64,000 nt of DNA from contig CP136063.1 in assembly GCA_032622095.1 (NCBI GenBank), positions 213,607,982-213,671,981 of the forward strand, written 5' to 3'. How positions within the stretch are numbered: the first letter of the stretch is position 1; each line of letters starts with the position of its first letter. The DNA is from Siphonodentalium dalli (taxonomy: Eukaryota > Mollusca > Scaphopoda > Gadilida > Siphonodentaliidae). Shown here piece by piece: positions 8,771-52,499 of the stretch. The notes beneath the pieces are model-generated. The model did not search any database and was not told where the DNA came from. It worked only from the letters and a program-made list of their open reading frames with translations. The position numbers were made by a program, and so were the translations under genes.

Positions 8771-8772
8771 AT

Positions 8773-9225
8773 ATTTGAATTTTGAGACAATGCAAATTTT
8801 TGAAATTGGGTGGGATACGAACCCCGGCCCGACGGCGAGCGCGCCTTGCGACTCAAAGTCCGACGTCAATACCACACGGCCACCGAAGCAACCCCAAAAA
8901 AAGGAAGCTCGAATGGCCGCTGTATTCCGACGTCGCACTTAGGACACTATATTCACATTTTTAAGGTCTCTTTATATATATGGATATATGAGGTTCGGCA
9001 CAGCGGCAATGTTATATATTTTATGCCTCCGAAACATGGCTGTGAATATAGTGTCCTAAGTGCGACGTCGGAATACAGTGGCCATTCGAGTTCCCTTTTT
9101 TTGGGGTTGCTTCGGTGGCCGTGTGGTATTGACGTCGGACTTTGAGTCGCAAGGCGCGCTCGCCGTCGGGCCGGGGTTCGTATCCCACCCAATTTCAAAA
9201 ATTTGCATTGTCTCAAAATTCAAAT
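8773..9225. mobile_element. Inverted pair of a tRNA-like (SINE-head) segment
   Basis: About 185 bp at 8773-8958 is repeated in reverse complement at 9040-9225 around an 80-bp spacer. Each arm contains a segment that, read outward (plus strand in the right arm, about 9105-9190), resembles a class II tRNA: an A-box-like GGTGGCCGTGTGGTATTGAC, a GC-rich variable-arm region, and a B-box-like GGGGTTCGTATCCC. The anticodon stem does not pair properly, so this is tRNA-derived and not a functional tRNA gene. A second inverted pair (8986-9032 against about 9290-9345, GAGGTTCGGCACAGCGGC) overlaps the spacer. The whole forms a nested foldback structure. Confidence 0.65.
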
Positions 9226-9349
9226 TTGCCGCTCAAAATAGGCGCCTGGTGTGTTGTATAGTCCCAAGCATGTTCTAAGAGCAATGCTCGCCATGTTTCG
9301 GAGGCATAAAATATATAACATTGCCGCTGTGCCGAACCTCATATATTCA

Positions 9350-11340
9350 TCTACATATATTGGAACAACTTATCTCCAGGTTATACGAAGGTATATTGAA
9401 TCGTCAAATTGGTATTATTTTGTTTTCGTAAAAAGTTGTCTCATGATACACATAATTATGTAGAACGACAATTGCATTCAAGTAAGCATTTTGTTCATGA
9501 GTCGCACAATTCATGCAAGCGAGTTACAAACATTGATGACATCTGAGTACGAACATTAGTGTTCCTATATTATATTTCGATAATCGCCAACAGTATTTCG
9601 CGTATGCTTCCGATCAACTTGTTATGATTTTGTTATGATTTTGACGTCAGAATAATCCGTATTTTATCAACTGTTAGCGACAATATTACATCTAATTATT
9701 CGCTTGTTGCCGCAATATATATCAGCCATGCAATAGCCATTGTTAATGTGCCAATTTGAATATCTGTCAACCGGTAATTGTTGTGTAAAATTACAATTTT
9801 CGATACTACGTGACAGATATTGTACATTTGTGGCAAACGACAATATATTGGGTATGCGTTGTGTTTGATGTTTTGGTGTACTAATGTTCTAAGCCGTAGA
9901 ACGTGTTGCTATACCATTCAATCTGACAGTGTATAACGAAGATCTGAAAGTGTGCGTTGTGAGGGGTAGTACTCCCAATTTAGTGTACGTTATCCCGAAA
10001 ACTCGCACATTATCTGCTTATAAATAACTTGTTTTAGGCAGATAAACTGCTTAGAATCGCGACTCATTTTTAGTCGATACTTTTGCTGAAAATGAGAGCA
10101 TTTTAGTTACATTGTCAACTCATAATGAGGCGATTCTAAGCAGATTGTGTGCGGACAATGTTACACATAAGCCAATTCACGACTTTTCAGGGGTACTCTC
10201 TTTAACCAGTGTAAGTTTTGTGTGAGCCCTGTGTGTATTGGGCCGTGTCATTATGTATCTCGTTATACAGATGTGAGACATAATTATGTATATATACATA
10301 TGTTTTAGACTTCATTGTTTCATGAGTTGGGCTAATATCGAGTAGAAACTTATTTCTGATGCGAATTATAAACAATATACAAGATCAATGTTTTACATGT
10401 GTATGGTGCGAAAATGATGTAACACATCGCTCAAGGTCTTCCATGCGGAATGGGACGCAGTCCATTAGATCATTTCGCCAATTCCTCATGCTGCTTTGTT
10501 CTGTGAAGTGGATTTCCTCAAAACTATATGTCTATGTTGCACTTTATCGACTCATCACGGATAGATATTTTTCAATCTTTTATTGCAAAAACAATCATAA
10601 TGAGAAAAGTGATCAATAAAAAGGTAAAATGTAGTTATAAATATAGACAAGAAGTTCCTCGAATTCTCACACACATCTCTCAATGCACACTCTTCCCTTG
10701 CTAACTAATTTCACTCACTCTCATAAGCCTACAGAATAAATATAAACTTGTGAGAATATTTATATAAATGATATTTTTTTGCAAAAGTATTCTTTTTTGT
10801 CGAGGTTTCTGGTGTACTATGATATCTGACGACTGCTGATTCCGCGAATCGTGCTGTTCTTTCGCCTTCTGTAAGCTCTGATTTTATTGAGCGCTAAATT
10901 TGCAAAGAGGTCTGATATCAGGAAGATTCACACCCCGATTTGTCTATTTTAAATTAATTGGCAGTTTTTCGTTGTCCACTGGGGAGGGACCTGGGTACAC
11001 CAAGCGGACCATGGTTCGGCCCGGTGTTAGAACAATTTGAAATCTGAACACGAAAATTGCATCTAGACTGCATGGCCTAAAGCTTCAAATTGTTGGATAT
11101 ATCTTTCTAAATTGACCCCCAGGAACATTTACAACTGATTACAGTCCAATATTTTGACAAAAAAGTAGCAAAATATGCAAATGTTGGTATAAAAACAACA
11201 ATTCTCCACTAACAATTTGTTGGAAAATAAAACTATGAGAACAGTTTCAACCTGTTGCCAATCGTTGCTGTGAAAGTTCCAATTAATGTAGTGTGAAATG
11301 TCCTGCCCACACCACTGTCGCCACGTATCAGCAGCCACGT
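9350..11340. other. No gene recognised; one inverted repeat at 10047-10146
   Basis: CTGCTTAGAATCGC at 10047-10060 is answered by GCGATTCTAAGCAG at about 10130-10143, forming a roughly 100-bp foldback next to GACTCATTTT words. The rest is AT-rich with many stops in all frames and no recognisable repeat. Confidence 0.5.
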
Positions 11341-11345
11341 GCACG

Positions 11346-11701
11346 TGTTACAGAATTTGTGCTTCTGTTTACATAAAGCAGCTCAATTCTATTGGTTAAT
11401 CACACACAAATTATATAAACGCTCTTTATTATTTCCATATCAGGAAAACAGTAACAAATGACGCTCTTTATGTTTACCATATCCGGATCTAAACAAAAGC
11501 CAGGTTCTGTAACGTGTTTTGCTTCTGTTTGCATAACAAAGGAAAAACATTTGACAATAACATACTGTTTATGCCATATTTCTGATTGGTATAAGAACAA
11601 GTTTGTCTATATTTTACTATTCTTTCTGTTTATGGCGGTTTTTGACGGAGGTGAATATTTTAACAGCATACCCACCGCCAACACCGCCCGTCATTTTAAA
11701 T
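11346..11701 (+). repeat. Dispersed family A, second copy
   Basis: Starts at GTGTTACAGAA and runs through TATAAACGCTCTTTATTATT, ACGCTCTTTATGTTTACC, GACAATAACATACTGTTTAT, TTCTGTTTATGGCGGTTTTT and ACCCACCGCCAAC. It is closest to the 46390 copy, sharing TTCTATTGGTTAATCACACA and the ATATCCGGATCTAAACAAAA stretch. The 83-aa plus-strand frame across it is a by-product of the repeat. Confidence 0.75.
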
Positions 11702-16196: not shown

Positions 16197-16598
16197 CTTA
16201 ACCCTTTACCCAACAGAAGGGCCCTGTGCCAATGCATTCTCTTATATATGCGAGTCGACCATAGGTCGCCTCGCATATATAAGAGAATGCATTGGCTTAA
16301 CACATTAAAAATTATAAAATTGTCAAAGAATGTAAGAAAAAATGGTAAAATGTGTTAAAAAAAGATTTTTTTTAGGCCAATGCATTCTCTTATATATGCG
16401 AGGCGACCTATGGTCGACTCGCATATATAAGAGAATGCATTGGCACAGGGCATAACTGTAACTATCACAATGTGGTCAAGGAGCCGATTCCAATGATATC
16501 CATATTTGTATGGTTCTATTGAGACAGACCGAAGATATTTTAGGCTGTTGAAGCTTTATTTGGCCGGTTTTGGCCGGTTTGTTGGGTAAAGGGTTAAG
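16197..16598. mobile_element. MITE-like element with two nested 67-bp palindromes
   Basis: The outer inverted ends are CTTAACCCTTTACCCAACA (16197-16215) and TGTTGGGTAAAGGGTTAAG (16580-16598). Inside, an almost perfect palindrome starting CCAATGCATTCTCTTATATA occupies 16229-16295 and recurs at 16377-16443 in reverse order, flanked by GCCCTGTGCC and GGCACAGGGC. The element is therefore a palindrome of palindromes. It contains AT-rich filler but no open frame of note. Confidence 0.8.
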
Positions 16599-32492: not shown

Positions 32493-33009
32493 TATCAGAG
32501 TGCAGAATACAACGTGTGCGGTCGGCGGTTGGTCTGACACTTCGACCTACATCAATTAAGCCTATCTTAACACGTTACTTATAAAAATATTAATCTAATA
32601 ACACCAGTATTTCTACCTGTCTATAATTCTATATACCAGAAACTAATTCAGAAATTAGCCACATACATACCTTTATAATTATATTGTTAGCTTTTCTGCA
32701 AGCCAAGTAAATTTACTTCAGTTCAGTGGGTCATTTCCACCCATATAAAATATATGTTGTAGGGTAATCGAGTTACAATACAATATTCTCTCGTTCCTAC
32801 AACATATCTTTTCTTTTTACTTTCTATACAGATATGTACAATTTTCTATATTATTTACTTTTACTTATATTTCTAAATTCATCATTACTAAAAGAGACTT
32901 AACTATCTTAAACTCTTATTTAAATTCTACTTATTTGCAGTCTCTCATTTATTATTAAATACGTTACATTTTCATTAAATCAAGTTAATACATAAAGTAC
33001 AATCTATTT
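32493..33009 (+). repeat. 5' LTR of the LTR retrotransposon
   Basis: The 517-bp segment from TATCAGAGTGCAGAATACAA to CATAAAGTACAATCTATTT is repeated at 36402-36869 and continues at 45869-45912 after a nested insertion. The copies differ at scattered sites (for example CTACATCAAT against CTACGTCAAT). ATATATGTTGTAGGGTAATC and CATCTTTTCTTTTTACTTTC words lie inside. The exact first base is uncertain because no clear target duplication is visible and the terminal dinucleotides are not TG/CA. Confidence 0.8.
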
Positions 33010-33016
33010 CTGCTCA

Positions 33017-34023
33017 AAACTTGTCTCCGTCTTGTGTGAACTTTTCCAGATAACCAGACACAAGACAATTGCATACTACCCAATGTCTAATGCAGTTTGT
33101 GAGAGAGTTAATTATACAATTGCACAATCTTTGCGGACATACATCAACCAGAAACAAACGAACTGGCCAGAACTATTTCCAAGTGTGATTATGGGATTAC
33201 GAAAATCACCATCTGCCACGACAGGATTTTCGCCATATCGTATGATTTTTGGAGAAGAGATGACTTTACCGATTGAAACGGAACTAACTCCTCGAGATCC
33301 CATTCACAAAACTGATAAAGAGCATCTTTCGGATATAATTTCGGATCTTAAGATAACAGACAAAATCTCGGAGGATAGAGTTAAAGCAGCCCAGCTAAAG
33401 CAAAATAATTCATATGACAAGAAAGCTAAGGAACCTCAATTATCTATAGGAAATCAAGTACTTTTGCGAAACAGTCAAGTGCCGAAAGGACTAGCCAGCA
33501 AATAATACAAGAAATGGACAGGTCAATTTTATATATCGCAAATGCGACCAAATGACACATACAGTCTACGATGGGTTACAACTCATAAACCATGGACATC
33601 AAGAGTTCACGCCAACCGTTTGAAACTTTACAACGATCCATTAAATCGACAGTATCAACCCGTGGAAATTGATCAAGAAATAATTGACAATATTCCTGAC
33701 AACATGACTTCTGACTGCGATCAACCAAATTCTTCTTCGCCGATCATACCAGATGACGGCACAGCTCAATCTTCCGATGAAGCATAACAGATTGAACGAT
33801 TAACAGGTGTCAAGACTATTAACAGAGTTAAACATTATCGCATCAAATTGAAAAATTACACCCAAACGACGTGGGAACCTGCTTCAAATAGACCTCCAAA
33901 CGTAATTAGAAAATATCACATTCGTCACACCATAACAGGCAAAACTCGCAAACGGAATAAAAGGTCATATTTCCAGAGACCAAATACTACGACATCGCTT
34001 CAAGATGTTAATCAAGATGCATA
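33017..34023 (+). pseudogene. 3' end of Gypsy-like pol: integrase C-terminus with chromodomain
   Basis: One frame runs from just after the 5' LTR to a TAA at 34021-34023, interrupted by two stops (33503-33505 and 33785-33787). It contains YYPMSNAVCERVN with the glutamate of the D,D-35-E triad, then TNWPELFPSVIMGLRKSP and TTGFSPYRMIFGEEM, then a GPY/F-like segment (KKWTGQFYI, HANRLKLYND), then a chromodomain-like end (YRIKLKNYTQTTWEPASN). Protease, reverse transcriptase, RNase H and the first two integrase catalytic aspartates are absent, because the remnant abuts the LTR directly. The element is internally deleted and cannot transpose by itself. Confidence 0.85.
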
Positions 34024-34156
34024 ATACTCACATGGATAACACAATCCACTGCAATTGCAATCGCTTTTAATCACACTCAGATAGCAATGCCTATGTTTCA
34101 GTATCTCGTGACTTATATTCAATAATGCTATCGATGCCATCCACGCCAATAATGAA

Positions 34157-36049
34157 ATGCTAAATACCATTCAACTGACGGTGGACGAAGACCTCAATAA
34201 GCTACGGGCAGAAAATGAACTTATAACGACTTTATCTATAAAGCAATTACGTCGTTTTTCTCAATTTGAGATAGATATAACAAAACTTTATATCGGCCGA
34301 ACAAACTTATTAAGAGGACAAGTAATTCCACTAGCAATTCCATGGAAACATTTGCATTCAACAAGTATGTACATAAATAACCAATTAACTACTTATCGCC
34401 CAGGCATATATTTAATTCATAATAATGCACGGTTATCTTATAAATTAACTAATTTTCATGTTGTTCGTAACAATCATCATGTATATACCACTTAAAAATT
34501 TCCAACAACAAACATGCCTCATCCATTATCACTTTACAAAATAACAACATATGCCATGCCAATAAACAACAAAACCTCACATGCATCGCGACTAACTGAC
34601 TTACCACAATTCATAGCATTAACACATGACTCAAGCTCATACCTTGAACTCAACACAAATGACATACGCACATGCCATTATGAGACACAACGTTTACAGA
34701 CATGCAACATCGATGTCGTTTACCACAGTTCAAACTTCTCTATTTGCACTATCGCACTTCTAAACAACGACATCGCACAAGTTAATTCTACTTGCACTTT
34801 TCGATTTTATACACATGTTGTCACACCAAACATTCAGCAATTAAACAAAACGCATATCCTACTCACCAACATATCACACATTCAAGCATCATGCACGCAC
34901 GCACGATACCAACTACACGATTTCAGGTTGCACATTTTGCGTAATACAAAAGCCTTGTCATTGCACACTCTCGACAAGCGACAATAAATCACATATACCT
35001 GCAATACATCAATCATGCAATCAACACAGCACAGCACAATCAACATTACATCCAGTTAATCTTGCTATGCTTCAGCAATTTTTCGACTCACAAACATTAA
35101 CAAATATTTCTGCCAGTACATTGTTTACAGAATCACCAGACATTACACTCCCAGCATTTAATTTATACAAGCACAATTTCTCCACATTCTTGGCCAACGA
35201 CAACGCCATGCATCTGAATCTCAAAACAGTGGTGCAAAATGCCAAGGACGACATACTTATATATAGTTCCTTAGCGGAACCAATTCTTAGCGGCGAACTG
35301 CTAACAGATAAAGGCACAAACCTAAGTTTTCTTCTTAGCGTTGTTGCCACATCTATTTCGGTCTTAGCAATGTTTTCCATCCTCGTCCTTTACAGAAAGT
35401 TTAAAGTTTGGTCTGCTGCACTGTTGTTGTTAGGCCACGCACAGACAAGTCACACTATGCCTATTTTCCACTACAGTACACCAGCACCATTCATAAGCAC
35501 CACTGAGCCATTTACATTGTCTATGAACAGTTTAACCCTTACGATCATTAATACTGCCATTATCTTCCTGTTGGGGCTTTCGCTTTTAATAGCAGTCTGT
35601 AATGCAATTTCCCGCCAGTCAGGATCAAAAGTAATCATGAAAATCACAAACGGTACAATTGCTTTGGCTCTCCCAATTTTCAAGCTACCATGTTCTGCCA
35701 AACACTGTGATTTTCAATTCCAAAACTTTCACTCGGAACCAAAATTATCTTTCACCTGCTGGCCTAAACTTCAGGTTACTTGGGACAATTTGGAAATAGT
35801 CTCAAAAGTTACTCCGGAAATTCAACTTACACCCATAAACACTTTATGGCTTAACCATATTCAAGCTCTTAACGCACGTCGTATTTTAAGCGGCGATTAT
35901 TGTGTATATCTTTGGGTGTATAACCAAGGTTTTCTAATCTTTTTGCATACTTCTTCACCTGCGTCCAATAGCGAAGTCGCTCCATCAGCACCAAAATGTA
36001 TTTCACCTATTTATCCACTCATTGACCAGGACAGTCAAATATGTTAGAA
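34157..36049 (+). pseudogene. Env-like region of the LTR element, broken into three frames
   Basis: Three successive open stretches lie downstream of pol: 34157-34495 and 34514-34987 in the same frame separated by a stop, then 35067-36049 in another frame. The middle one has paired cysteines and NSTC/NKT/NIS-type N-glycosylation sites. The last has a membrane-spanning stretch followed by a short basic segment (about residues 90-125) and a second hydrophobic stretch (about 155-180), as in a class I or baculovirus-F-like envelope protein. Position, membrane segments and glycosylation sites support 'env'. I cannot name the family. The stops and frame change make it non-functional. Confidence 0.6.
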
Positions 36050-36401
36050 TATACAATTTATTGTTATGCCTATTACTCATAGATATGTCAGTTTGTGTTT
36101 TTCTAGTTTACTATATCTGTGGTCAGTATATTTAGGATATATGTAATAAACTTTGAAAATCTGAACATTCCCCGCTATCATCAATTCAATTCTTGGAAAA
36201 TCTATCAGCAAAGAAGAGGACATCCATGAACGCTCTTTAGCAACAATAGATCTACATTTCACCCTTCTTCGAGCTATGTCCAGGAACATATACCACAACG
36301 CTCTTTATCAACGACAGCTCTACATCATCTTTATTCGAACGATGTCCATGAGGACATGTTAAGCCTCTGTGACATCGGCTTTAACCCTCTGCCGGGGAAA
36401 T

Positions 36402-36869
36402 TATCAGAGTGCAGAATACAACGTGTGCGGTCGGCGGTTGGTCTGACACTTCGACCTACGTCAATTAAGCCTATCGTAACACGTTACTTATATAAATATT
36501 AATCTAATAACACCAGTATTTCTACCTGTCAATAATTCTTATACCAGAAACTAATTCAGAAATTAGCCACATACATACCTTCATATATTGTTAGCTTTTC
36601 TGCAAGCCAAGTAAATTTACTTCAGTTCATTGTGTCATTTCCACCCATATAAAATATATGTTGTAGGGTAATCGAGTTACAATACAATATTCTCTCGTTC
36701 CTACAACATATCTTTTCTTTTTACTTTCTATACAGGTATGTACAATTTTCTATATTATTTACTTTTACTTATATTTCTAAATTCATCATTACTAAAAGAG
36801 ACTTAACAATCTTAAACTCTTATTTAAATTCTACTTATTTGCAGTATCTCACTTATTATTAAATACGTT
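36402..36869 (+). repeat. 3' LTR of the LTR retrotransposon, first part
   Basis: Begins TATCAGAGTGCAG after a purine-rich GGGGAAA word and follows the 5' LTR to TATTAAATACGTT, where the 9-kb palindromic element is inserted. The remaining 44 bp are at 45869-45912. Upstream, at about 36228 and 36296, two AACGCTCTTTA words resemble the family A motif. Confidence 0.85.
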
Positions 36870-37110
36870 AGAAGAATAGCCGTCTCGTTACCCCCACATC
36901 TAAAAATAGAATTTGTGGGTCTAAAATTGGTTGTACTAAAATATTCCCAAAATATCAAAACCCCAAAAAAATTTCAAAACTTCCAAAATTTATTTTTTCC
37001 AAAAAATTTCAAAAACCCAAAAACAAAAAATTTCAAAATCCCCAAATTTCAAAAAACGAAAAAATTTCAAAACCCTCAAAATTATTTCTCTAAAAAAACA
37101 GTTTAAATAA
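36870..37110. repeat. Left terminal inverted repeat and CAAAA-rich tract
   Basis: Starts AGAAGAATAGCC, then CATCTAAAAATAGAATTTGT, GGTCTAAAATTGGTTGTACT and AAAATATTCCCAAAA, followed by a TTTCAAAA/CCCAAAA low-complexity tract. The mirrored version ends at 45862. The open frame through it (36915-37106) is low-complexity and not a gene. Confidence 0.85.
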
Positions 37111-38091
37111 AAAATTTATAACGAGTTTTCGGTTTCTGATAATCTCGATATTAAAAAATGTCGAATGTTTATTAAAATTATTTGCGTGTAATATCTTTCG
37201 TTATTTTTTTTGTTCAAATATTTTTCATGAAATTATTAATCGATGTTTAGAAATAGCTTTATTGGACATTGTGACCATCGATATGAATGCATACATTCCA
37301 GTGTTTATCGGACGCAGTTCATACATATATAATTGTCATACCTGAAAATAGACACCATTACTCTTACATAAATAATAAAGAGCGTTTATTCTTAACTTCT
37401 CTATCCCAGATGAAGTTATTGAGTATATGACAGGTGTGTATTATCGTGAATTATTGGAAGTATTGAGATGTACTATCTTGAATCACGAGTGGACGAAAAG
37501 GGTAATGTGAAATTACAACCCCCAGAATGAATTGTCATATTCGATGGAACATATTATGTACAAGTAATCACACACGACATTGTGGGTAACAATGTGTCTT
37601 TCACACCTTGCTTTACCAAATGAATTCTATTATATTCCCGTTCACAGTTATATGCCATTCAGAAAACATATCGATTTAATGTCTGAGCAGTATTAGTTGT
37701 TTAACGGGTTAGTATCAATTAAGGTTGATAAACTGTGTCATTGTTAGCATTAACACGATAATTAGTTATCCAAAAAATGCATACATAATACGTCCAGGTC
37801 ACTCAATGATAGAAATTGCTTCGGTGTCATTGTTATAACAACATTACGTAATAACCACTTATCGCCCCACATTCATACTTACGCTTTGGACATTTTATCA
37901 GTTTATCACGTGATCACTAAATGTGGCAATCGGGTATCCTCCGATGCCTGCAATATATTATTTATAATAATTGGACTCATTGATCTCACGTGAATAATAC
38001 TCTTAGTTGTTCCAATAAAATAGTTATCAAATTCGATCACCAATAGATTTGACTGTGGAATGTAATGACCTTTAACTTATTTATCGATCTA
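37111..38091. repeat. Left arm, non-coding subterminal segment
   Basis: No convincing gene. It contains AATAATAAAGAGCGTTTATTC at 37372, the dispersed AATAAAGAGCGTT motif, and GTGTATTATCGTGAATTATT at about 37436, a copy of the sequence just upstream of the zinc-finger genes. Repeat R1 (37875-38098: ACATTTTATCAGTTTATCAC, GTGATCACTAAATGTGGCAA) recurs at 39226-39440. Confidence 0.65.
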
Positions 38092-38385
38092 AAGGGACAC
38101 TCATTATGAATGAATGTTAACAATACAAGCGCACGAATGAAGAGCGTTGAACATATACGAAATTACTACACGAATGAATTGAACCTTGAAATTTATATTT
38201 CACATCTTACCAACAACAGCTACAGACATAATCATAGTATTATACTGTCTTGCATGTACACACGCTATGACATCATTAAAGGTGGACAATCCACTCACGG
38301 TGTGACAACAGATACGGACATAGGCATAGTGTTATACAGTCTTCTATGTACCCACGCTATGACACCATTAACGTACATTGGATGT
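38092..38385. repeat. Left arm repeat R2 (first copy)
   Basis: AAGGGACACTCATTATGAAT, GCACGAATGAAGAGCGTTGA, ATTTCACATCTTACCAACAA and GGTGTGACAACAGATACGGA occur here, again at 39838-40115, and in shortened form at 39600-39770. Right-arm mirrors are at 42868-43165, 43225-43400 and 44345-44640. A frame of 85-92 aa is open in the longer copies, but the short copies do not preserve it. I treat this as a repeat, not a gene. Confidence 0.7.
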
Positions 38386-38415
38386 TAGGTCTATGACTCT
38401 TGAGTATGCACCAAT

Positions 38416-38846
38416 CAATGAGCAAATGAGCAAAAAAATGAGCAAATGAGCAAAAAAATGAGCAAATGAGCAAGAAAATGAGCAAATGAGCAAGAAAATG
38501 AGCAAATGAGCAAGAAAATGAGCAAATGAGCAATAAAAATGAGCAAATGAGCAAAAAAATGAGCAAATGAGCAATAAAAATGAGCAAATGAGCAAAAAAA
38601 TGAGCAAATGAGCAAAAAAATGAGCAAATGAGCAAGAAAATGAGCAAATGAGCAAGAAAATGAGCAAATGAGCAAGAAAATGAGCAATAAAAATGAGCAA
38701 ATGAGCAAGAAAATGAGCAAATGAGCAAGAAAATGAGCAAATGAGCAAGAAAATGAGCAAATGAGCAATAAAAATGAGCAAATGAGCAAAAAAATGAGCA
38801 AATGAGCAAATGAGCAAAAAAATGAGCAAATGAGCAAAAAAATGAG
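38416..38846. repeat. (ATGAGCAAATGAGCAARAAA)n minisatellite, left arm
   Basis: About 430 bp of ATGAGCAAATGAGCAAAAAA and variants (AAGAAA, AATAAAA). All three minus-strand frames are open because the unit lacks stops on that strand, giving Leu/Ile/Cys/Ser/Phe-rich frames of about 150 aa that are by-products. The mirrored array at 44150-44315 is only about 165 bp. Confidence 0.95.
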
Positions 38847-40200
38847 ATGTAACATTATATCACTGTTATTGTATCAATTGATAGGTTCAGACAAGTTCGA
38901 TGTTTAGAAAAGAAAAGTTACCTATAATTCTGCTGTGGTTAAGCAGTCCATTATTTAGGGCATACCTGTATGTAGGCCTATCAGTGGATGAATAGTCTGC
39001 CGGAGAAGTACTGTGTTGACAGGTCTTGTCGGTAAGAGAGTCAAACGAGAAGTGAAGCCTCGGCTATTAAAACATAGTAATGCGATAGCGAACATCAAAC
39101 GAGTCTGCGCACGCATATCTGTCAAAAGGATACAATAGCAGTCATTGGTCAATTTATCCCCGGTGTCAGCTCAGTACCCAATCAGGACGAAGCCGAAGGT
39201 CAACTCATTTTTTTTGCTCATTATAGTACGTCACTTGGACATTTTATCAGTTTATCACGTGATCACTAAATGTGGCAATCGGGTATCCACCGATGCCTGC
39301 AATTTATTATTTATAATAATTGGACTCATTGATCTCACGTAAATAATACTCTTAGTTGTTCCAATAAAATAGTTATCAAATTCGATCACCAATAGATTTG
39401 ACTGTGGAATATAATGACCTTTAACTTATTTATCGATCTATGTTAGAACATGGTCTTAACAAAAAACTTGACCATAACAAAAATTACCTTACATTTATGC
39501 ATGAATCTAATTAGACCATACGTAAATATTGTCAGCTTATCGTCTGATGAGCAAATCCGATGTTTATCAAAAATAGTACAACTTCCAGTTGGTAATTACT
39601 CTTACGAATGAAGAGCGTTGAACATATACGAAATTACTACACGAATGAACTGAAATTTATATTTTCACATCTTACCAACAACAGATACAGACATAGTCAT
39701 AGTGTTATACTATCTTACATGTACCCATGCTATGACATCATTCGAAGGGGCAATACACTCAAGGAGTTAAAGTGACACGAAACAAGGGACGTGATGTAAT
39801 ATTGGTGTTTGAATCTTAAAGGAACACAAGACACTCTAAAGGGACACTCATTATGAATGAATGTTAACAATACAAGCGCACGAATGAAGAGCGTTGAACA
39901 TATACAAAATTACTACACGAATGAATTGAACCTTGAAATTTATATTTCACATCTTACCAACAACAGCTACAGGCATTATCATAGGGTTATACTGTCTTGC
40001 ATATACACACGCTATGACATCATTAAAGGCGGACAATCCACTCACGGTGTGACAACAGATACAGACATAGGCATAGTGTTATACAGTCTTCTATGTACCA
40101 ATGCTATGACATAATTAAAGGGGGATAATACACGCACGGTGTGGAATGTTAAAGTGACACGCGGTATAGATATATAACGAAGACGAGAATAGCATGTTGA
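38847..40200. repeat. Left arm, second R1/R2 block
   Basis: Unique spacer 38847-39225, then R1 (39226-39440), then a unique stretch with AATCTAATTAGACCATACG, then a shortened R2 (39600-39770) and a full R2 (39838-40115). The order is mirrored in the right arm at 42790-44145. No gene is supported. Confidence 0.65.
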
Positions 40201-40205
40201 TGAAG

Positions 40206-40211
40206 TTTATT
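40206..40211 (-). terminator. Polyadenylation signal AATAAA of the left zinc-finger gene
   Basis: AATAAA on the minus strand begins 6 bp past the TAA stop of the 189-aa gene. The mirror in the right arm is at 42743-42748. Such tight packing of stop and signal is typical of compact viral or mobile-element genes. Confidence 0.7.
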
Positions 40212-40216
40212 GAAAT

Positions 40217-40786
40217 TTAATCATTGTCTGAATCTTCGACCGTTAGATTTACTTCTAAGAGTTTCTTGAATTTTCTCATCGCTTCATCTGCAGCCCATTC
40301 ATTATTATATCCGTGTTTGGTCAGTTTGACCATTTTCTTCATGATCATGGTATGTATGCGTGATGTTTTCAATCGATACTGGTATTCTATTAATCGTCTA
40401 TAACTTTTGAGAAACAGAGCAAACTCTGTGTCGATGGTATCCTCTTTTCCCGACATGCTCTCATCTCCCGAAATGCTCTCTTCTTCTTTCACATCATTGG
40501 TGACGCGTTTCATCATACTTTTGAATGTGTCCATCTCGTTGACACATCGCGCAGCTTTCTTAAGACCGAATACCGTTCTACTACCGACGACATTACCATC
40601 TTCTGAATCTGATAGCGTTCCCCGTTCATCTTCATCTGAATCTAGACCCGCTTCGTCAGATTCATCGGTATCTTCTCCGAATAGAGTTGGTTTTGTCTCG
40701 GACATAACTCCGTGTTTAATCTGTTTATGTCTTTGTAGATTGTAGTTCGTCGATAAAATAATGCCACATAAATCACACCCGTGCAT
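40217..40786 (-). CDS. C2H2 zinc-finger protein, 189 aa, left-arm copy
   Basis: Starts MHGCDLCGIIL and has one classical C2H2 finger at residues 4-25 (C-x2-C-x12-H-x4-H, CDLC...HKQIKH). Next comes an acidic Asp/Glu/Ser-rich middle (residues about 37-65) and a second acidic stretch (about 100-118), then a helical, Lys/Arg-rich C-terminus (LKSYRRLIEYQYRLK, KMVKLTKHGYNNEWAADEAM). The acidic-plus-helical layout suggests a DNA-binding or regulatory factor (inference). The right-arm copy encodes an identical protein and I see one synonymous change (CTA/CTC near 40680). It sits downstream of the 105-aa gene in the same orientation. No named family is recognised. Confidence 0.85.
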   Translation of the reverse strand: MHGCDLCGIILSTNYNLQRHKQIKHGVMSETKPTLFGEDTDESDEAGLDSDEDERGTLSDSEDGNVVGSRTVFGLKKAARCVNEMDTFKSMMKRVTNDVKEEESISGDESMSGKEDTIDTEFALFLKSYRRLIEYQYRLKTSRIHTMIMKKMVKLTKHGYNNEWAADEAMRKFKKLLEVNLTVEDSDND

Positions 40787-40967
40787 TATCGCGAATTATT
40801 GGAAGAACCATCACTCTTATAAGTAGTGATAAAAAGAGAGAATAAGGTGTGGTATACAACCATCGCGCTAAGAGTACGTTCGTCCCGGGGCTAGGGTATA
40901 GATATTTGACCGCCGGTGATTCAATTAATGCCAATTTATCAGTATGGTACTCTATGTATTCATTCAT
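40773..40967 (-). CDS. Small ORF between the two arm genes, left arm only
   Basis: A 64-aa frame begins MNEYIEYHTDKLALI, 7 bp after the stop of the 105-aa gene, and overlaps the start of the zinc-finger gene. Most of it is absent from the right arm because of a deletion of about 200 bp. With no recognised motif it may be a remnant or spurious, but its placement in a tightly packed block is noted. Confidence 0.35.
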   Translation of the reverse strand: MNEYIEYHTDKLALIESPAVKYLYPSPGTNVLLARWLYTTPYSLFLSLLIRVMVLPIIRDNARV

Positions 40968-40974
40968 GATTTGG

Positions 40975-41292
40975 CTAATCGTATGACACTGGTCTTTTCA
41001 TTTTCTTCTTATTATTAGACAAACCTCCAACTCTCTTGTTCGTTTGTTTGGACGCTTTACGTGTGTTTGTCAACTTATTTGCTGCAACTTCGGCCTTAGC
41101 CATTTCAATCGCTTGAGCGAGGGGTGTCACCACGTTAATATGTGGTTTTAGAACGTCTTCTTCACTATCACTATTTTTAGTTCTGTCAATAAAGTATCGA
41201 CCCTGATTATCTGGTATTAACTTCCCATCAACCATATCTCTGAAATGTTTTCTCCACATTTCAAGATCTGCTGGAATATACGGGATCGACAT
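40975..41292 (-). CDS. Conserved arm gene, 105 aa, left-arm copy
   Basis: Starts MSIPYIPADLEMWRKHFRDM and ends in a Lys/Asn/Arg-rich tail (TNKRVGGLSNNKKKMKRP). It lies about 60 bp downstream of a TATA-like box (41355-41362), close to the palindrome centre, facing outward. The basic tail and compact size would suit a nucleic-acid-binding or virion-core-type protein, but I do not recognise the family with certainty and claim no function. The right-arm copy keeps the first 97 residues and has a changed tail. Confidence 0.8.
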   Translation of the reverse strand: MSIPYIPADLEMWRKHFRDMVDGKLIPDNQGRYFIDRTKNSDSEEDVLKPHINVVTPLAQAIEMAKAEVAANKLTNTRKASKQTNKRVGGLSNNKKKMKRPVSYD

Positions 41293-41354
41293 GTTTCTTC
41301 AAAATGTACAAGTCACTCTTTTTTCTGCATTTTATTTTAGAAAGTTTATCGCCT

Positions 41355-41362
41355 CTTATAAA
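41355..41362 (-). promoter_or_regulatory. TATA-like box of the left-arm gene block
   Basis: TTTATAAG on the minus strand, in the context ATATTTATAAGAGGCGATAA, lies 63 bp upstream of the ATG at 41292. The mirrored box lies at 41776-41783, 63 bp before the ATG at 41846. The equal spacing on both arms simply follows from the palindrome. Confidence 0.5.
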
Positions 41363-41775
41363 TATCGATTATTGCATCTAAAAATAGAATCTTTGGGTCT
41401 AAAATTGGTTGTACTAAAATATTCCCAAAAACCCAAAACTTCAAAAATATTCCCAAAAACCCAAAACTTCAAAAATTTCAAAAACTTCAAAAAACTTCAA
41501 AAATTTCAAAAACTTCAAAAATAAAACCCCGCCGGCGGCGGCGGCATTGCGGTATTTTACTGCGGCGGCGGTGCCGCCGCCGCCGCCGCCGGGGTCCGCC
41601 ACCGGCGGGGTCTTATTTTTGAAGTTTTTTGAAGTTTTTGAAATTTTTGAAATTTTTGAAGTTTTTTGAAATTTTTGAAGTTTTTTGAAGTTTTTGAAGT
41701 TTTGGGTTTTTGGGAATATTTTAGTACAACCAATTTTAGACCCAAAGATTCTATTTTTAGATGCAATAATCGATT
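41363..41775. repeat. Centre of the palindrome: internal copies of the terminal sequence and a GC hairpin
   Basis: From both sides the centre is approached through GCATCTAAAAATAGAATCTT, GGTCTAAAATTGGTTGTACT and CCCAAAAACCCAAAACTTC, the same sequence as the outer ends at 36898 and 45830. The middle (41526-41612) is a GCC/GGC-rich hairpin (CCCCGCCGGCGGCGG...CCGGCGGGG). It looks like two element ends fused head to head, with the GC block as the hinge. The two open frames across it are low-complexity. Confidence 0.8.
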
Positions 41776-41783
41776 TTTATAAG
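41776..41783 (+). promoter_or_regulatory. TATA-like box of the right-arm gene block
   Basis: TTTATAAG in CGATTTTTATAAGAGGCG lies 63 bp upstream of the ATG at 41846. The left arm has ATATTTATAAG at the mirrored place. Confidence 0.5.
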
Positions 41784-41845
41784 AGGCGATAAACTTTCTA
41801 AAATAAAATGCAGAAAAAAGAGTGACTTGTACATTTTGAAGAAAC

Positions 41846-42181
41846 ATGTCGATCCCGTATATTCCAGCAGATCTTGAAATGTGGAGAAAACATTTCAGAG
41901 ATATGGTTGATGGGAAGTTAATACCAGATAATCAGGGTCGATACTTTATTGACAGAACTAAAAATAGTGATAGTGAAGAAGACGTTCTAAAACCACATAT
42001 TAACGTGGTGACACCCCTCGCTCAAGCGATTGAAATGGCTAAGGCCGAAGTTGCAGCAAATAAGTTGACAAACACACGTAAAGCGTCCAAACAAACCAAC
42101 AAGAGAGTTGGAGGTTTGTCTAATAATAAGAAGAAAATGGTGATGGTTCTTCCAATAATTCGCGATAATGCACGGGTGTGA
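41846..42181 (+). CDS. Conserved arm gene, 111 aa, right-arm copy with altered tail
   Basis: Identical to the left-arm protein through NNKKKM, then reads VMVLPIIRDNARV to a TGA at 42179-42181. The altered end arises from a deletion of about 200 bp whose left edge lies right after AAGAAAAT. The new stop overlaps the start of the zinc-finger gene (42168), so the two genes now overlap by 14 bp. The tail swap removes the KRPVSYD end found on the left. Confidence 0.75.
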   Translation: MSIPYIPADLEMWRKHFRDMVDGKLIPDNQGRYFIDRTKNSDSEEDVLKPHINVVTPLAQAIEMAKAEVAANKLTNTRKASKQTNKRVGGLSNNKKKMVMVLPIIRDNARV

Positions 42182-42737
42182 TTTATGTGGCATTATTTTA
42201 TCGACGAACTACAATCTACAAAGACATAAACAGATTAAACACGGAGTTATGTCCGAGACAAAACCAACTCTCTTCGGAGAAGATACCGATGAATCTGACG
42301 AAGCGGGTCTAGATTCAGATGAAGATGAACGGGGAACGCTATCAGATTCAGAAGATGGTAATGTCGTCGGTAGTAGAACGGTATTCGGTCTTAAGAAAGC
42401 TGCGCGATGTGTCAACGAGATGGACACATTCAAAAGTATGATGAAACGCGTCACCAATGATGTGAAAGAAGAAGAGAGCATTTCGGGAGATGAGAGCATG
42501 TCGGGAAAAGAGGATACCATCGACACAGAGTTTGCTCTGTTTCTCAAAAGTTATAGACGATTAATAGAATACCAGTATCGATTGAAAACATCACGCATAC
42601 ATACCATGATCATGAAGAAAATGGTCAAACTGACCAAACACGGATATAATAATGAATGGGCTGCAGATGAAGCGATGAGAAAATTCAAGAAACTCTTAGA
42701 AGTAAATCTAACGGTCGAAGATTCAGACAATGATTAA
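42168..42737 (+). CDS. C2H2 zinc-finger protein, 189 aa, right-arm copy
   Basis: Same protein as the left-arm copy at 40217-40786: C2H2 finger near the N-terminus, two acidic stretches, and a basic helical C-terminus ending VNLTVEDSDND. The TAA at 42735-42737 is followed by AATAAA at 42743-42748. The ATG follows CCAATAATTCGCGATA directly, a word that recurs at 37436 and 45275. A possible regulatory role within the element is inference. Confidence 0.85.
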   Translation: MHGCDLCGIILSTNYNLQRHKQIKHGVMSETKPTLFGEDTDESDEAGLDSDEDERGTLSDSEDGNVVGSRTVFGLKKAARCVNEMDTFKSMMKRVTNDVKEEESISGDESMSGKEDTIDTEFALFLKSYRRLIEYQYRLKTSRIHTMIMKKMVKLTKHGYNNEWAADEAMRKFKKLLEVNLTVEDSDND

Positions 42738-42742
42738 ATTTC

Positions 42743-42748
42743 AATAAA
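42743..42748 (+). terminator. Polyadenylation signal AATAAA of the right zinc-finger gene
   Basis: AATAAA 5 bp past the stop codon, mirrored at 40206-40211. Confidence 0.7.
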
Positions 42749-42789
42749 CTTCATCAACATGTTATTCTCGTCTTCGTTATATATCTATA

Positions 42790-44145
42790 AGTGGGGAGGG
42801 GGTTTCACCAATATTACATCACGTCCCTTACCGCGTGTCACTTTAACATTCCACACCGTGCGTGTATTATCCCCCTTTAATTATGTCATAGCATTGGTAC
42901 ATAGAAGACTGTATAACACTATGCCTATGTCTGTATCTGTTGTCACACCGTGAGTGGATTGTCCGCCTTTAATGATGTCATAGCGTGTGTATATGCAAGA
43001 CAGTATAACCCTATGATAATGCCTGTAGCTGTTGTTGGTAAGATGTGAAATATAAATTTCAAGGTTCAATTCATTCGTGTAGTAATTTTGTATATGTTCA
43101 ACGCTCTTCATTCGTGCGCTTGTATTGTTAACATTCATTCATAATGAGTGTCCCTTTAGAGTGTCTTGTGTTCCTTTAAGATTCAAACACCAATATTACA
43201 TCACGTCCCTTGTTTCGTGTCACTTTAACTCCTTGAGTGTATTGCCCCTTCGAATGATGTCATAGCATGGGTACATGTAAGATAGTATAACACTATGACT
43301 ATGTCTGTATCTGTTGTTGGTAAGATGTGAAAATATAAATTTCAGTTCATTCGTGTAGTAATTTCGTATATGTCAACGCTCTTCATTCGTAAGAGTAATT
43401 ACCAACTGGAAGTTGTACTATTTTTGATAAACATCGGATTTGCTCATCAGACGATAAGCTGACAATATTTACGTATGGTCTAATTAGATTCATGCATAAA
43501 TGTAAGGTAATTTTTGTTATGGTCAAGTTTTTTGTTAAGACCATGTTCTAACATAGATCGATAAATAAGTTAAAGGTCATTATATTCCACAGTCAAATCT
43601 ATTGGTGATCGAATTTGATAACTATTTTATTGGAACAACTAAGAGTATTATTTACGTGAGATCAATGAGTCCAATTATTATAAATAATAAATTGCAGGCA
43701 TCGGTGGATACCCGATTGCCACATTTAGTGATCACGTGATAAACTGATAAAATGTCCAAGTGACGTACTATAATGAGCAAAAAAAATGAGTTGACCTTCG
43801 GCTTCGTCCCGATTGGGTACTGAGCTGACACCGGGGATAAATTGACCAATGACTGCTATTGTATCCTTTTGACAGATATGCGTGCGCAGACTCGTTTGAT
43901 GTTCGCTATCGCATTACTATGTTTTAATAGCCGAGGCTTCACTTCTCGTTTGACTCTCTTACCGACAAGACCTGTCTACACAGTACTTCTCCGGCAGACT
44001 ATTCATCCACTGATAGGCCTACATACAGGTATGCCCTAAATAATGGACTGCTTAACCACAGCAGAATTATAGGTAACTTTTCTTTTCTAAACATCGAACT
44101 TGTCTGAACCTATCAATTGATACAATAACAGTGATATAATGTTAC
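42790..44145. repeat. Right arm, R1/R2 repeat block
   Basis: Mirror of 38847-40200: full R2 (42868-43165), shortened R2 (43225-43400), R1 (43554-43768) and the unique spacer (43770-44145). The sequence is very close to the left arm, with scattered single-base differences (for example TCCCGATTGG against TCAGGACGAA at the start of the spacer). Confidence 0.7.
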
Positions 44146-44149
44146 ATCT

Positions 44150-44315
44150 CATTTTTTTGCTCATTTGCTCATTTTTTTGCTCATTTGCTCATTTTTTTGC
44201 TTATTTGCTCATTTTTTTGCTCATTTGCTCATTTTCTTGCTCATTTGCTCATTTTCTTGCTCATTTGCTCATTTTTTTGCTCATTTGCTCATTTTTTTTG
44301 CTCATTTGCTCATTG
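44150..44315. repeat. (TTTTTTGCTCATTTGCTCAT)n minisatellite, right arm
   Basis: About 165 bp, eight units, against about 430 bp in the left arm. The open plus-strand frames across it are by-products of the repeat. Confidence 0.95.
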
Positions 44316-44344
44316 ATTGGTGCATACTCAAGAGTCATAGACCT

Positions 44345-45862
44345 AACATCCAATGTACGTTAATGGTGTCATAGCGTGGGTACATAGAAGACTGTATAAC
44401 ACTATGCCTATGTCCGTATCTGTTGTCACACCGTGAGTGGATTGTCCACCTTTAATGATGTCATAGCGTGTGTACATGCAAGACAGTATAATACTATGAT
44501 TATGTCTGTAGATGTTGTTGGTAAGATGTGAAATATAAATTTCAAGGTTCAATTCATTCGTGTAGTAATTTCGTATATGTTCAACGCTCTTCATTCGTGC
44601 GCTTGTATTGTTAACATTCATTCATAATGAGTGTCCCTTTAGATCGATAAATAAGTTAAAGGTCATTACATTCCACAGTCAAATCTATTGGTGATCGAAT
44701 TTGATAACTATTTTATTGGAACAACTAAGAGTATTATTCACGTGAGATCAATGAGTCCAATTATTATAAATAATATATTGCAGGCATCGGAGGATACCCG
44801 ATTGCCACATTTAGTGATCACGTGATAAACTGATAAAATGTCCAAAGCGTAAGTATGAATGTGGGGCGATAAGTGGTTATTACGTAATGTTGTTATAACA
44901 ATGACACCGAAGCAATTTCTATCATTGAGTGACCTGGACGTATTATGTATGCATTTTTTGGATAACTAATTATCGTGTTAATGCTAACAATGACACAGTT
45001 TATCAACCTTAATTGATACTAACCCGTTAAACAACTAATACTGCTCAGACATTAAATCGATATGTTTTCTGAATGGCATATAACTGTGAACGGGAATATA
45101 ATAGAATTCATTTGGTAAAGCAAGGTGTGAAAGACACATTGTTACCCACAATGTCGTGTGTGATTACTTGTACATAATATGTTCCATCGAATATGACAAT
45201 TCATTCTGGGGGTTGTAATTTCACATTACCCTTTTCGTCCACTCGTGATTCAAGATAGTACATCTCAATACGTCCAATAATTCACGATAATACACACCTG
45301 TCATATACTCAATAACTTCATCTGGGATAGAGAAGTTAAGAATAAACGCTCTTTATTATTTATGTAAGAGTAATGGTGTCTATTTTCAGGTATGACAATT
45401 ATATATGTATGAACTGCGTCCGATAAACACTGGAATGTATGCATTCATATCGATGGTCACAATGTCCAATAAAGCTATTTCTAAACATCGATTAATAATT
45501 TCATGAAAAATATTTGAACAAAAAAAAATAACGAAAGATATTACACGCAAATAATTTTAATAAACATTCGACATTTTTTAACATCGAGATTATCAGAAAC
45601 CGAAAACTCGTTATAAATTTTTTATTTAAACTGTTTTTTTAGAGAAATAATTTTGAGGGTTTTGAAATTTTTTCTTTTTTTGAAATTTGAGGATTTTGAA
45701 ATTTTTTGTTTTTGGGTTTTTGAAATTTTTTGGAAAAAATAAATTTTGGAAGTTTTTAATTTTTATTTGGGTTTTGATATTTTGGGAATATTTTAGTACA
45801 ACCAATTTTAGACCCACAAATTCTATTTTTAGATGTGGGGGTAACGAGACGGCTATTCTTCT
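44345..45862. repeat. Right arm, terminal segment and right terminal inverted repeat
   Basis: R2 (44345-44640), R1 (44641-44850), the non-coding subterminal segment with AACGCTCTTTATTATTTATG at about 45346, the TTTTGAAATTTT low-complexity tract, and the final CTATTCTTCT. It closely mirrors 36870-38385. Confidence 0.8.
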
Positions 45863-45868
45863 TACGTT

Positions 45869-45912
45869 ACATTTTCATTAAATCAAGTTAACACATAAAG
45901 TACAATCTATTT
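45869..45912 (+). repeat. 3' LTR of the LTR retrotransposon, last part
   Basis: ACATTTTCATTAAATCAAGT through CAATCTATTT continues the LTR interrupted at 36869. The two parts total about 512 bp, the length of the 5' LTR. Confidence 0.8.
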
Positions 45913-46389: not shown

Positions 46390-46765
46390 TAAACAAGAGC
46401 CTGCTCGTGTTACAGAAGTTGTGCTTCTGTTTACATAACACAGCGCAATTCTATTGGTTAATCACACACAAATGATATAAACGCTCTTTATTATTTCTAT
46501 ATCAGGAAAACAGTAACAAATAACGCTCGTTATGTTTACCATATCTGGATCTAAACAAAACGCAGGTAACGTAGCGTTGTTTTGCTTTTATTTACATAAC
46601 AAAGGGAAAACAGATGACAATAACATACTGTTTGTGCCATATTTCTGATTGGTGTAAGAACAAAGTCTGTCTATATTTTACTATTCTTTCTGTTTATGGC
46701 GGTTTTTGACGGAGGTGAATATTTTAACAGCATACCCACCGCCAACGCCGACCGTATCTTTAAAC
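46390..46765 (+). repeat. Dispersed family A, third copy
   Basis: AAGAGCCTGCTCGTGTTACA, TATAAACGCTCTTTATTATT, AACGCTCGTTATGTTTACC (second motif mutated), GACAATAACATACTGTTTGT, TTCTGTTTATGGCGGTTTTT and ACCCACCGCCAACGCC. It is closest to the 11346 copy. Confidence 0.75.
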
Positions 46766-47334: not shown

Positions 47335-47575
47335 TATTTTCAAGTTCAGGAATAACTTCATTCACGGAGGATATACTTTCAATCAACGCAGATTAAATTT
47401 ATGGTATGTTATTTTGCAATCAGCAAACCTGCACTTTTAACTCGTATATTTACTGAACACATCTACTGTCCGTTGCTTTATAAGGCGGGAAATATAACAT
47501 ACCATAAATTTAGTCTGCGTTGATTGAAAGTTTATCCGCCGTGAATGAAGTTGTTCCTGAACTGGAAAATATGGA
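47335..47575. mobile_element. Inverted-repeat element with long arms (about 85 bp each)
   Basis: AGTTCAGGAATAACTTCATT through TAAATTTATGGTATGTTATT on the left is inverted on the right (AATATAACATACCATAAATT through AATGAAGTTGTTCCTGAACT). The spacer is about 75 bp. A 61-aa frame on the left arm is a by-product. Confidence 0.75.
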
Positions 47576-49214: not shown

Positions 49215-49745
49215 CCCATTTTTTTTATTTCTTTAAAGACACGGTTGGTCTTGGCGGTAGGTATCCTGTGAAAATATCTCCACCCGTCAAAAACCGACAC
49301 AAACAGAAAGAACATCAAAATGTAGATAGACTTTGTCCGTATACAAATAAGAAAAAATCGCATAAACAGTATGTTGTGGTCATATGTTTGACCATTGTTA
49401 TGTAAACAAAAGCATAAATAGTTACTTTTCTGGTGTTTGTTTATATTATGATGGTAATATAAAGAGCGTTCTTTGTTGGTGAATACCTGATATGGAACTA
49501 ATAAAGAGCGTTTATGCCATCTGTGTGTGATTAACCAGTAGCATTGTGCTGTCTTCTGTAACACAATCAGGCTCTTGCTTAGGTAATATATAGTAGGTCT
49601 TTTTTCATCAACAGCTATTGATGATATGTTTTCACAACGTAACATGCTGTTTACGCGATGGTCATGGTATATATGAACGGAACTGTATGCGTTTTAATGT
49701 TTTTCTGTTTACGGTGTTTGGAACAAATATGAATATTTTCGACAA
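49215..49745 (-). repeat. Dispersed family A, inverted near-complete copy
   Basis: The reverse complement of the 5145 copy along its whole length: ACGGTTGGTCTTGGCGGTAG, GGTCATATGTTTGACCATTG, AAAGAGCGTTCTTTG, ATAAAGAGCGTTTATGCC, CTGTCTTCTGTAACACAATC and GTTTACGCGATGGTCATGGT. The 174-aa minus-strand frame (49121-49645) is a by-product. A further fragment, ATCAACAGCTATGGATGATA, lies near 50820. Confidence 0.75.
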
Positions 49746-50049
49746 TTAATGCCGCACATGCCTTTAACAAAGCGGCATCGATTTGCCACGTTTTCGGTGG
49801 ACACTGTGGTCGGCTGAACTTTTATTTTGTACATCAATGCCATCGTCGAGAACCTTATATGTAGTATAGAATGACGATGCATCGATATACTTAACAGTAG
49901 AAGACCCTAACTTAGCGGCATACCAAATTAATTCAGTTTAGAAATAATTACTAAATGGTCCGGACAATGGATAGTGAAATTCAGTGCTCATATAAAACAA
50001 GATCCATGATTATGTCACGAAAAGACAAACAGCTGACATATAAACCTTT

Positions 50050-52044: not shown

Positions 52045-52375
52045 CGCCATTAAATATGACAAATAGTCTTTATTTATCTGGGACTATTTCTTTACCCAGG
52101 CAAATAAAGCATAGTTACGCGAAAGTCATCGCATGCTTTATAGAAGCCGATGTTAGTTTCGCGTCCCATTTGTTGATATAAGTATGTTTTGTCAACATTT
52201 TTGGATCATGTAATAAATAGAATCTACAACTCGTCCCCAGTTTATAGCGGAATTTATAAAACTCGTCCAGTAAATTAGGTCTGGACCTCGCCAAAGGCTT
52301 GGTCCAGCCCTAATTTACTAGACTCGTTTTGTAAATTCCGCTATAGTAAACTGGGGACTCGTTGAAGATCCTCTA
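52045..52375 (-). repeat. Dispersed family B, inverted copy
   Basis: The inverted counterpart of 19495-19800, with a palindromic interior (GTCCAGTAAATTAGGTCTGG ... AGCCCTAATTTACTAGAC) around 52265-52320. AAGCCGATGTTAGTTTCGCG and GTCCCATTTGTTGATATAAG match the plus copy's complement. Confidence 0.7.
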
Positions 52376-52499
52376 TATAAGCAATATACTTATCATACCA
52401 AATGGTAAACTAGAACAATCCTTACCTACCCTTCTTCGAAGATAATGTTATATTATTTAGGCCTACGATAAACGACGACAATCTTATTTTTCCCCATGA

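What the first reader, a model, noticed from the sequence alone, without database searches (positions are those of the whole stretch)
36870..45862. A 9-kb element that is almost entirely one giant palindrome, with Polinton-like ends
Seen: left and right halves are inverted copies along their full length. The termini are AGAAGAATAG...CTATTCTTCT and a 6-bp duplication TACGTT flanks the element. Known: Polinton/Maverick elements make 6-bp duplications and begin 5'-AG. Inference: this is a non-autonomous relative, or a distinct class, that carries accessory genes in duplicated arms with no polymerase, integrase or capsid gene.
Basis: partly seen in the sequence, partly recalled or inferred. Interest (0 to 1): 0.9.

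Follow-up and report, generated by a model that had tools for sequence, protein, structure and literature searches.

The report
Giant palindromic satellite of a Polinton
A 9-kb mobile DNA that is almost a mirror image of itself occurs in many copies in one large eukaryotic genome, lacks its own copying and inserting genes, and probably borrows them from virus-like Polinton elements that share its ends.

Summary
36870-45862 is an inverted pair of about 4.5-kb arms with AGAAGAATAG...CTATTCTTCT ends and a 6-bp duplication. It interrupts one copy of an LTR-like repeat; the other copy keeps the empty site. It belongs to a family: exact 6-bp duplications flank 25 of 28 elements examined, and 16 of these are palindromic. 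The same genome holds 16-18 kb Polintons with the same 20-bp tips. Three of the ten seen enclose scored PolB matches, and one of these also has an rve integrase. The palindrome's outer 1 kb is their TIR (97-98% without gaps), and its ORF B is a Polinton gene (81% aa). It is therefore a non-autonomous Polinton derivative, most likely copied and inserted in trans (inferred). New: left and right arms of one element are each other's closest relatives in 8 of 8 elements, and both tips carry the same variable 6-bp box in 26 of 26. Arms are re-copied or converted in concert. A second palindrome family carries a distant relative of ORF A. New variant of a known kind.

The parts
36870..45862 (.). palindromic element, 8993 bp
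   Evidence: inverted arms, termini, empty site
36864..36869 (+). target site duplication TACGTT, left
45863..45868 (+). target site duplication TACGTT, right
36870..37883 (+). left TIR, arm 1-1014, homologous to TIRs of resident Polintons
   Evidence: 86-94% with gaps; 97.2-97.9% without gaps over arm 261-1000
44848..45862 (-). right TIR, mirror of the left
38846..38911 (+). 65-bp block (arm 1977-2042) that matches the inner part of the Polinton TIR; mirror at about 44083-44148
   Evidence: all four Polinton ends compared; mirror
38417..38846 (+). satellite of ATGAGCAA-like units, left arm (longer than the right)
44148..44314 (-). satellite, right arm
40217..40786 (-). ORF A, 189 aa, weak C2H2 finger, left arm
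   Evidence: zf-C2H2 E 0.0031, below cut-off
42168..42737 (+). ORF A, right arm
40975..41292 (-). ORF B, 105 aa, left arm; homologue of a Polinton gene
41846..42181 (+). ORF B, right arm; C-terminus differs because 184 bp present in the left arm are absent here
41375..41519 (+). inner copy of subterminal TIR sequence, left of the centre
41617..41763 (-). inner copy of subterminal TIR sequence, right of the centre
41531..41607 (.). GC-rich core, not mirrored; variable between copies
36402..36869 (+). left part of the interrupted LTR-like repeat (continues at 45863-45912)
32493..33009 (+). uninterrupted copy of the same repeat (empty site)

Best explanation
It is a non-autonomous palindromic derivative of a Polinton (Maverick), in effect a satellite of resident Polintons. 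Shown: it shares tips, 6-bp duplications and TIR with 16-18 kb elements of the same genome, of which three seen enclose PolB and one of these also an integrase; it carries two divergent copies of a Polinton gene (ORF B) and of a zinc-finger gene (ORF A); relatives are spread over all nine contigs; and the two arms of an element are each other's closest relatives. Inferred: Polinton PolB starts protein-primed copying at the shared ends (AGAAGA would permit jump-back), Polinton integrase inserts the linear product with a 6-bp stagger, and a displaced strand folds into one long hairpin in which the arms are matched to each other. Also inferred: it arose by template switching during such replication, followed by rearrangement, since ORF B is reversed and joined to a TIR tip at the centre. 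I put the non-autonomous Polinton part at about 0.9 and hairpin replication as the cause of matched arms at about 0.5.
For: Empty site. Tip pattern 236 sites, control 0; 44 facing pairs among the first 100 sites listed, 30 of 4.9-11.4 kb and 10 of 16.0-18.2 kb, three of the ten with PolB. Exact 6-bp duplications in 25 of 28 elements. TIR of the window within the range of Polinton TIRs: 97.2-97.9% against 97.7-98.6% without gaps. ORF B homologue in the Polinton C1:147.77, 81% over 84 columns, dN/dS 0.29. rve and chromo domains in the same Polinton. Arms sisters in 8 of 8 elements, ultrafast bootstrap 93-100. Same base 14 and 6-bp box at both tips in 26 of 26, 16 combinations.
Against: No transposition or replication was observed. 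The arm beyond the TIR does not follow either Polinton end, so a simple fold-back is not the origin. ORF A was not found in the Polinton pieces read. In the middle arm segment identity within elements (99.3-100%) overlaps that between elements (98.6-99.9%). In one of two Polintons the two TIRs are not each other's closest, so matching is not general beyond the tips. Within palindromes pN/pS is 0.57 (ORF A), 0.51 and 0.17 (ORF B, two lengths) on 13, 9 and 5 variants, too few to show selection. Three of 28 elements lack an exact duplication, and one of the 25 exact ones lies in a G run.
Confidence: 0.65

Rival explanations
1. A Polinton-mobilised element as above, but the arms stay alike through ordinary arm-to-arm gene conversion in the chromosome after insertion, not through hairpin replication.
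For: Arms as sisters fit conversion equally well; in one of two Polintons, whose TIRs lie about 14 kb apart, the TIRs are not sisters, as expected if conversion needs close arms.
Against: The 6-bp box agrees at both tips in 26 of 26 elements, the ten long Polintons included, which points to copying of ends during replication. The window copy keeps unmatched indels of 41-184 bp.
Confidence: 0.25
2. A distinct autonomous class in which ORF A or ORF B acts as the mobility protein.
For: ORF A and ORF B are the only sizeable non-satellite ORFs seen, and none of 150 scored ORF B frames but one has a stop.
Against: Same tips, TIR and duplication size as PolB-bearing elements; ORF B is itself a Polinton gene; ORF A shows only a weak C2H2 finger.
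Confidence: 0.04
3. A silencing locus: the inverted arms give double-stranded RNA against Polintons (like Mu killer in maize, recalled).
For: Arms contain Polinton TIR and ORF B sequence.
Against: Both ORFs read outward from the centre, so their transcripts need not cross it; the shared coding stretch is only 82% identical in DNA; dispersal with 6-bp duplications needs no such role.
Confidence: 0.04
4. Assembly or fold-back read artefact.
For: Palindromes are hard to assemble, and raw reads were not available here.
Against: Different flanks that together match an uninterrupted repeat copy; 16 palindromic copies at different places with their own duplications.
Confidence: 0.02

Closest known systems
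Polinton/Maverick elements (PMC8097293: passages, and section 7)
   Same: 6-bp duplications, repeated end motif, TIR, and the resident 16-18 kb copies have PolB, rve integrase and a weak Peptidase_C5 match
   Different: Half the length, no PolB, integrase or capsid gene seen, almost entirely palindromic; end motif AGAAGA is neither (AG)3, (AGT)2 nor (AC)3A reported there for vertebrates
Foldback-like elements such as Galileo (PMC3573991: passages)
   Same: First copies of Galileo consisted only of long TIRs; an autonomous relative was found later
   Different: [quoted passage not shown] here the relative is a Polinton, and the arms carry genes
Deletion derivative of the kalilo linear plasmid that forms hairpin and duplex DNA (title in a reference list only)
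   Same: Protein-primed replicon giving a short derivative that forms hairpins
   Different: Mitochondrial plasmid; here chromosomal, many copies, rearranged arms with ORFs
Copy-back or snap-back defective virus genomes (recalled)
   Same: Palindromic, short, dependent on a helper, both ends identical
   Different: Here integrated in many copies, with composite arms

Membership tests
Polinton/Maverick (as element kin) | 6-bp target site duplication | tested here: met
   25 of 28 exact; window TACGTT with empty site
Polinton/Maverick (as element kin) | TIR shared with PolB-bearing Polintons | tested here: met
Polinton/Maverick (as element kin) | short repeat at the very end (5'-AG start) | tested here: met
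   AGAAGA at all 26 tip pairs tabulated, selected by that tip; repeat motif described in PMC8097293
Polinton/Maverick, autonomous | protein-primed PolB, rve integrase, capsid genes, protease, ATPase in the element | tested here: not met
   none among the ORFs of the window element
Non-autonomous Polinton derivative | autonomous partner with the same ends in the same genome | tested here: met
Non-autonomous Polinton derivative | mobilisation by the partner's proteins | not testable with these tools
   needs in-vitro or in-vivo assay
Galileo / P-superfamily Foldback | P-type transposase in an autonomous relative | not tested
   no P-transposase search was run; the relatives found carry rve integrase and 6-bp duplications
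Copy-back defective genome | arm is a colinear copy of one end of the helper genome | tested here: not met
   beyond the TIR the arm does not match either Polinton end, and ORF B is reversed

The most novel reading that the evidence does not exclude
The palindromes are a long-lived satellite lineage of Polintons, comparable to a virophage of a transposon. They replicate as self-annealing hairpins on a borrowed protein-primed polymerase, match one arm to the other in each cycle, and have split into at least two families that both keep a zinc-finger gene and, in one, a Polinton gene from the capsid region, possibly to be packaged or to control the helper.
Probability: 0.35. Interest if true: 0.85.

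Novelty: new variant of a known kind. Interest (0 to 1): 0.74.

Why it matters
A genome with many PolB frames that look open (the best-scoring 69 of 1596 candidates) and palindromic dependants with matched arms makes Polinton replication and helper dependence testable: each insertion records how its ends and arms were copied. It also shows that palindromes of 5-11 kb can be spread in numbers by a virus-like transposon. Among the papers listed by my searches (titles and abstract starts of the 25, 4, 20, 20, 16, 3 and 15 listed, out of 44, 4, 32, 30, 16, 4 and 55 that held the terms) none announces palindromic Polintons. The original Polinton and Maverick papers and Repbase were not available to me.

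Tried and rejected
No relative of ORF A, ORF B or the second family's ORF was found among 5.8 billion proteins and none of ORF A or ORF B in IMG/VR; these searches need shared short words, so distant kin could be missed. Two degenerate motif scans of IMG/VR gave 3 and 26 stretches; tblastn of ORFs A and B against all 29 found only matches of 10-27 residues around the searched motif, so I dropped them. Rfam and tRNA scans of the window were empty. PHROGs gave one weak match for ORF B (E 0.011-0.017); PDB sequence searches gave nothing credible for ORF B or the protease-like ORF.

A plain fold-back of a Polinton end was my first model and fails in that form. A genome-wide ORF A search was asked for many times and never answered.

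Not examined: 833 of 983 ORF B candidates and 1527 of 1596 PolB candidates were not scored; 136 of 236 tip sites were not listed. Flanks were looked at for 28 elements chosen by me, not at random. No structure prediction was run.
Full report
What is there. Window 36870-45862 (8993 bp) consists of two inverted arms around a GC-rich core at about 41531-41607. Arm against arm, 4250 ungapped columns hold 57 mismatches, most of them in the AT-rich and GC-rich centre; larger indels are 141, 122, 184 and 41 bp. From outside in, each arm holds about 1 kb that proves to be a Polinton TIR, further repeats with an ATGAGCAA-like satellite, a 65-bp block that matches the inner part of that TIR, ORF A (189 aa; zf-C2H2 E 0.0031, below cut-off), ORF B (105 aa in the left arm), and a second copy of subterminal TIR sequence next to the centre. 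Both ORFs read outward.

Proof of insertion. The flanks, joined with one TACGTT, match the uninterrupted repeat copy 32493-33009 at 500 of 517 columns, with 5 gap columns and 12 substitutions. Between the two repeat copies lie frames that I read by eye as a gypsy-type integrase fragment and an env-position ORF; Pfam gave no hit for them. I take the repeat pair for LTRs of a deleted retrotransposon. The palindrome looks younger than that pair: 6 differences in 2101 arm columns (two segments) against 12 in the repeat.

A family. The window's genome is held as 2.23 Gb in 9 contigs. The outer 1.5 kb has 53 matches from the 40 of 2839 candidates scored, mostly in facing pairs. ORF B has 150 matches from the 150 of 983 candidates scored, 97-100% identical; one has a stop. 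The best were scored, so intactness is biased upward. Of 58 neighbouring ORF B pairs under 6 kb apart, 57 are divergent, as a palindrome centre demands; 34 copies had no scored neighbour, the window's left copy among them.

Ends. The tip pattern occurs 117 times forward and 119 times reverse, the control none. The 100 sites listed give 44 facing pairs and 12 single sites: 30 pairs of 4.9-11.4 kb, 2 of 13-15 kb, 10 of 16.0-18.2 kb, 2 of 27-30 kb. Exact 6-bp duplications: 5 of 6 in the first set (window included), 9 of 10 further short elements, 9 of 10 long ones, 2 of 2 with a variant tip AGAAGAATAGG: 25 of 28. Two misses differ at one base (C9:20.31, C1:170.04); C2:55.9 has none; one exact case (C4:66.0) lies in a G run and says little. 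Of the 10 further short elements 8 are mirrored at 2.3-2.6 kb from the ends at 99.6-100%, two of them over only 104 and 117 bp; C1:75.96 fits only with an offset; C4:88.59 is not mirrored at its midpoint. With the window and seven others read in full 16 elements are palindromic.

The helper. PF03175 has 149 matches from 69 of 1596 candidates scored, mostly in frames of about 950 or about 1310 codons, one match with a stop. Three of the ten 16-18 kb pairs enclose such a PolB; the others may simply not have been scored. In one of them, C1:147772161-147788362, the pieces read also show a P-loop ATPase (AAA_22 1.8e-4, Pox_A32 2.5e-3, all below cut-off), an integrase (rve 3.3e-15, Chromo 8.1e-8), two 145-aa ORFs, an 86-codon ORF B homologue, and then a capsid-like frame. 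In C3:191326827-191343192 a 148-aa ORF matches Peptidase_C5 weakly (E 5.9e-4, 20.0 bits, cut-off 21.3). Capsid names rest on motifs I recall; Pfam gave no hit. Vertebrate Mavericks have integrase, minor capsid, PW, major capsid, protease in one module (PMC8097293, section 7); ORF B lies where PW would, which is position only.

Relation of the two. The outer 1014 bp match four TIRs of two Polintons at 86-94% with gaps, and at 97.2-97.9% without gaps over arm 261-1000; Polinton TIRs among themselves give 97.7-98.6%. ORF B with upstream DNA matches the Polinton at 82% over 472 columns, the protein at 81% over 84; dN 0.10, dS 0.36. Within palindromes variants are few: pN/pS 0.57, 0.51 and 0.17 on 13, 9 and 5 variants, no proof of selection. 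In the arm ORF B is reversed and, just beyond the shared stretch, joined to the inner TIR-like copy. So this is a rearranged derivative, not a simple fold-back. ORF A was not found in the Polinton pieces read, about 12 kb from three copies with some overlap; the genome-wide search never ran.

Concerted arms. For eight elements, TIR-segment identity within an element is 99.3-100%, between elements 96.8-99.6% (mean 98.2); in the middle segment 99.3-100% against 98.6-99.9% (mean 99.5), which overlaps. The tree of both segments pairs left and right arm of the same element in 8 of 8, ultrafast bootstrap 93-100, SH-aLRT 89-99. Base 14 and the 6-bp box after CTCGTT vary between elements (16 combinations, 11 boxes) but agree at both ends in 26 of 26. 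In one of two Polintons the TIRs are not each other's closest. So tips are copied together in both kinds, and whole arms in the palindromes. Hairpin replication or conversion after insertion can both do this.

A second family. C1:170.04, C2:10.53 and C2:67.27 share tips and symmetry but not the arm interior at 2.3-2.6 kb. C2:67.27 carries there a 175-aa C2H2-type ORF, 22% identical to ORF A, pairwise BLASTP E 1e-8. Two diverged palindrome families with related outward-reading genes suggest a lasting lineage; independent uptake is not excluded.

Mechanism. Shown: insertion with 6-bp duplication, shared ends, TIR and gene, helper genes in the same genome, matched arms. Inferred: joining by the Polinton integrase, priming by PolB with jump-back on AGAAGA (proposed for Maverick end motifs, PMC8097293 passage), hairpin form, origin by template switching. 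A precedent for hairpins is a kalilo plasmid derivative, of which I saw the title only.

Verdict. New here are the helper in the same genome, the abundance, the matched arms and tips, and the second family.

Noticed in passing
36890-36895 and 45837-45842; tips of 26 elements: A variable 6-bp box follows CTCGTT in the tip: 11 boxes among 26 elements, always the same at both ends of one element. Its length equals that of the target duplication; it may be a fossil duplication carried along inside the end.
   Followed up: partly
41531-41607 and centres in L042, L056, L058, L063, L069, L080: The core between the arms is a variable (CGG)n-rich spacer; in L069 no GC-rich core is present.
   Followed up: partly
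L053 (C4:186390200-186400150): A stretch with a Polinton-type ORF B region (85% over 468 columns) close to palindrome arm pieces, perhaps an intermediate or a nested insertion.
   Followed up: no
C2:129500643-129513867 and C2:129568818-129581769: Two copies about 68 kb apart with the same match values, probably a segmental duplication.
   Followed up: no
G000, all nine contigs: Two PolB classes, frames of about 950 and about 1310 codons, many without stops among those scored: at least two Polinton lineages.
   Followed up: no
32493-36869: LTR-like repeats enclosing only a 3' integrase-like part and an env-position ORF, perhaps a deleted gypsy-type element.
   Followed up: partly
5110-5612, 11340-11700, 46402-46764, 49233-49768: A dispersed repeat family of about 0.35-0.5 kb in the window.
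   Followed up: no
8770-9228, 16221-16451, 47335-47571, 52213-52378: Small self-complementary stretches, MITE-like.
   Followed up: no
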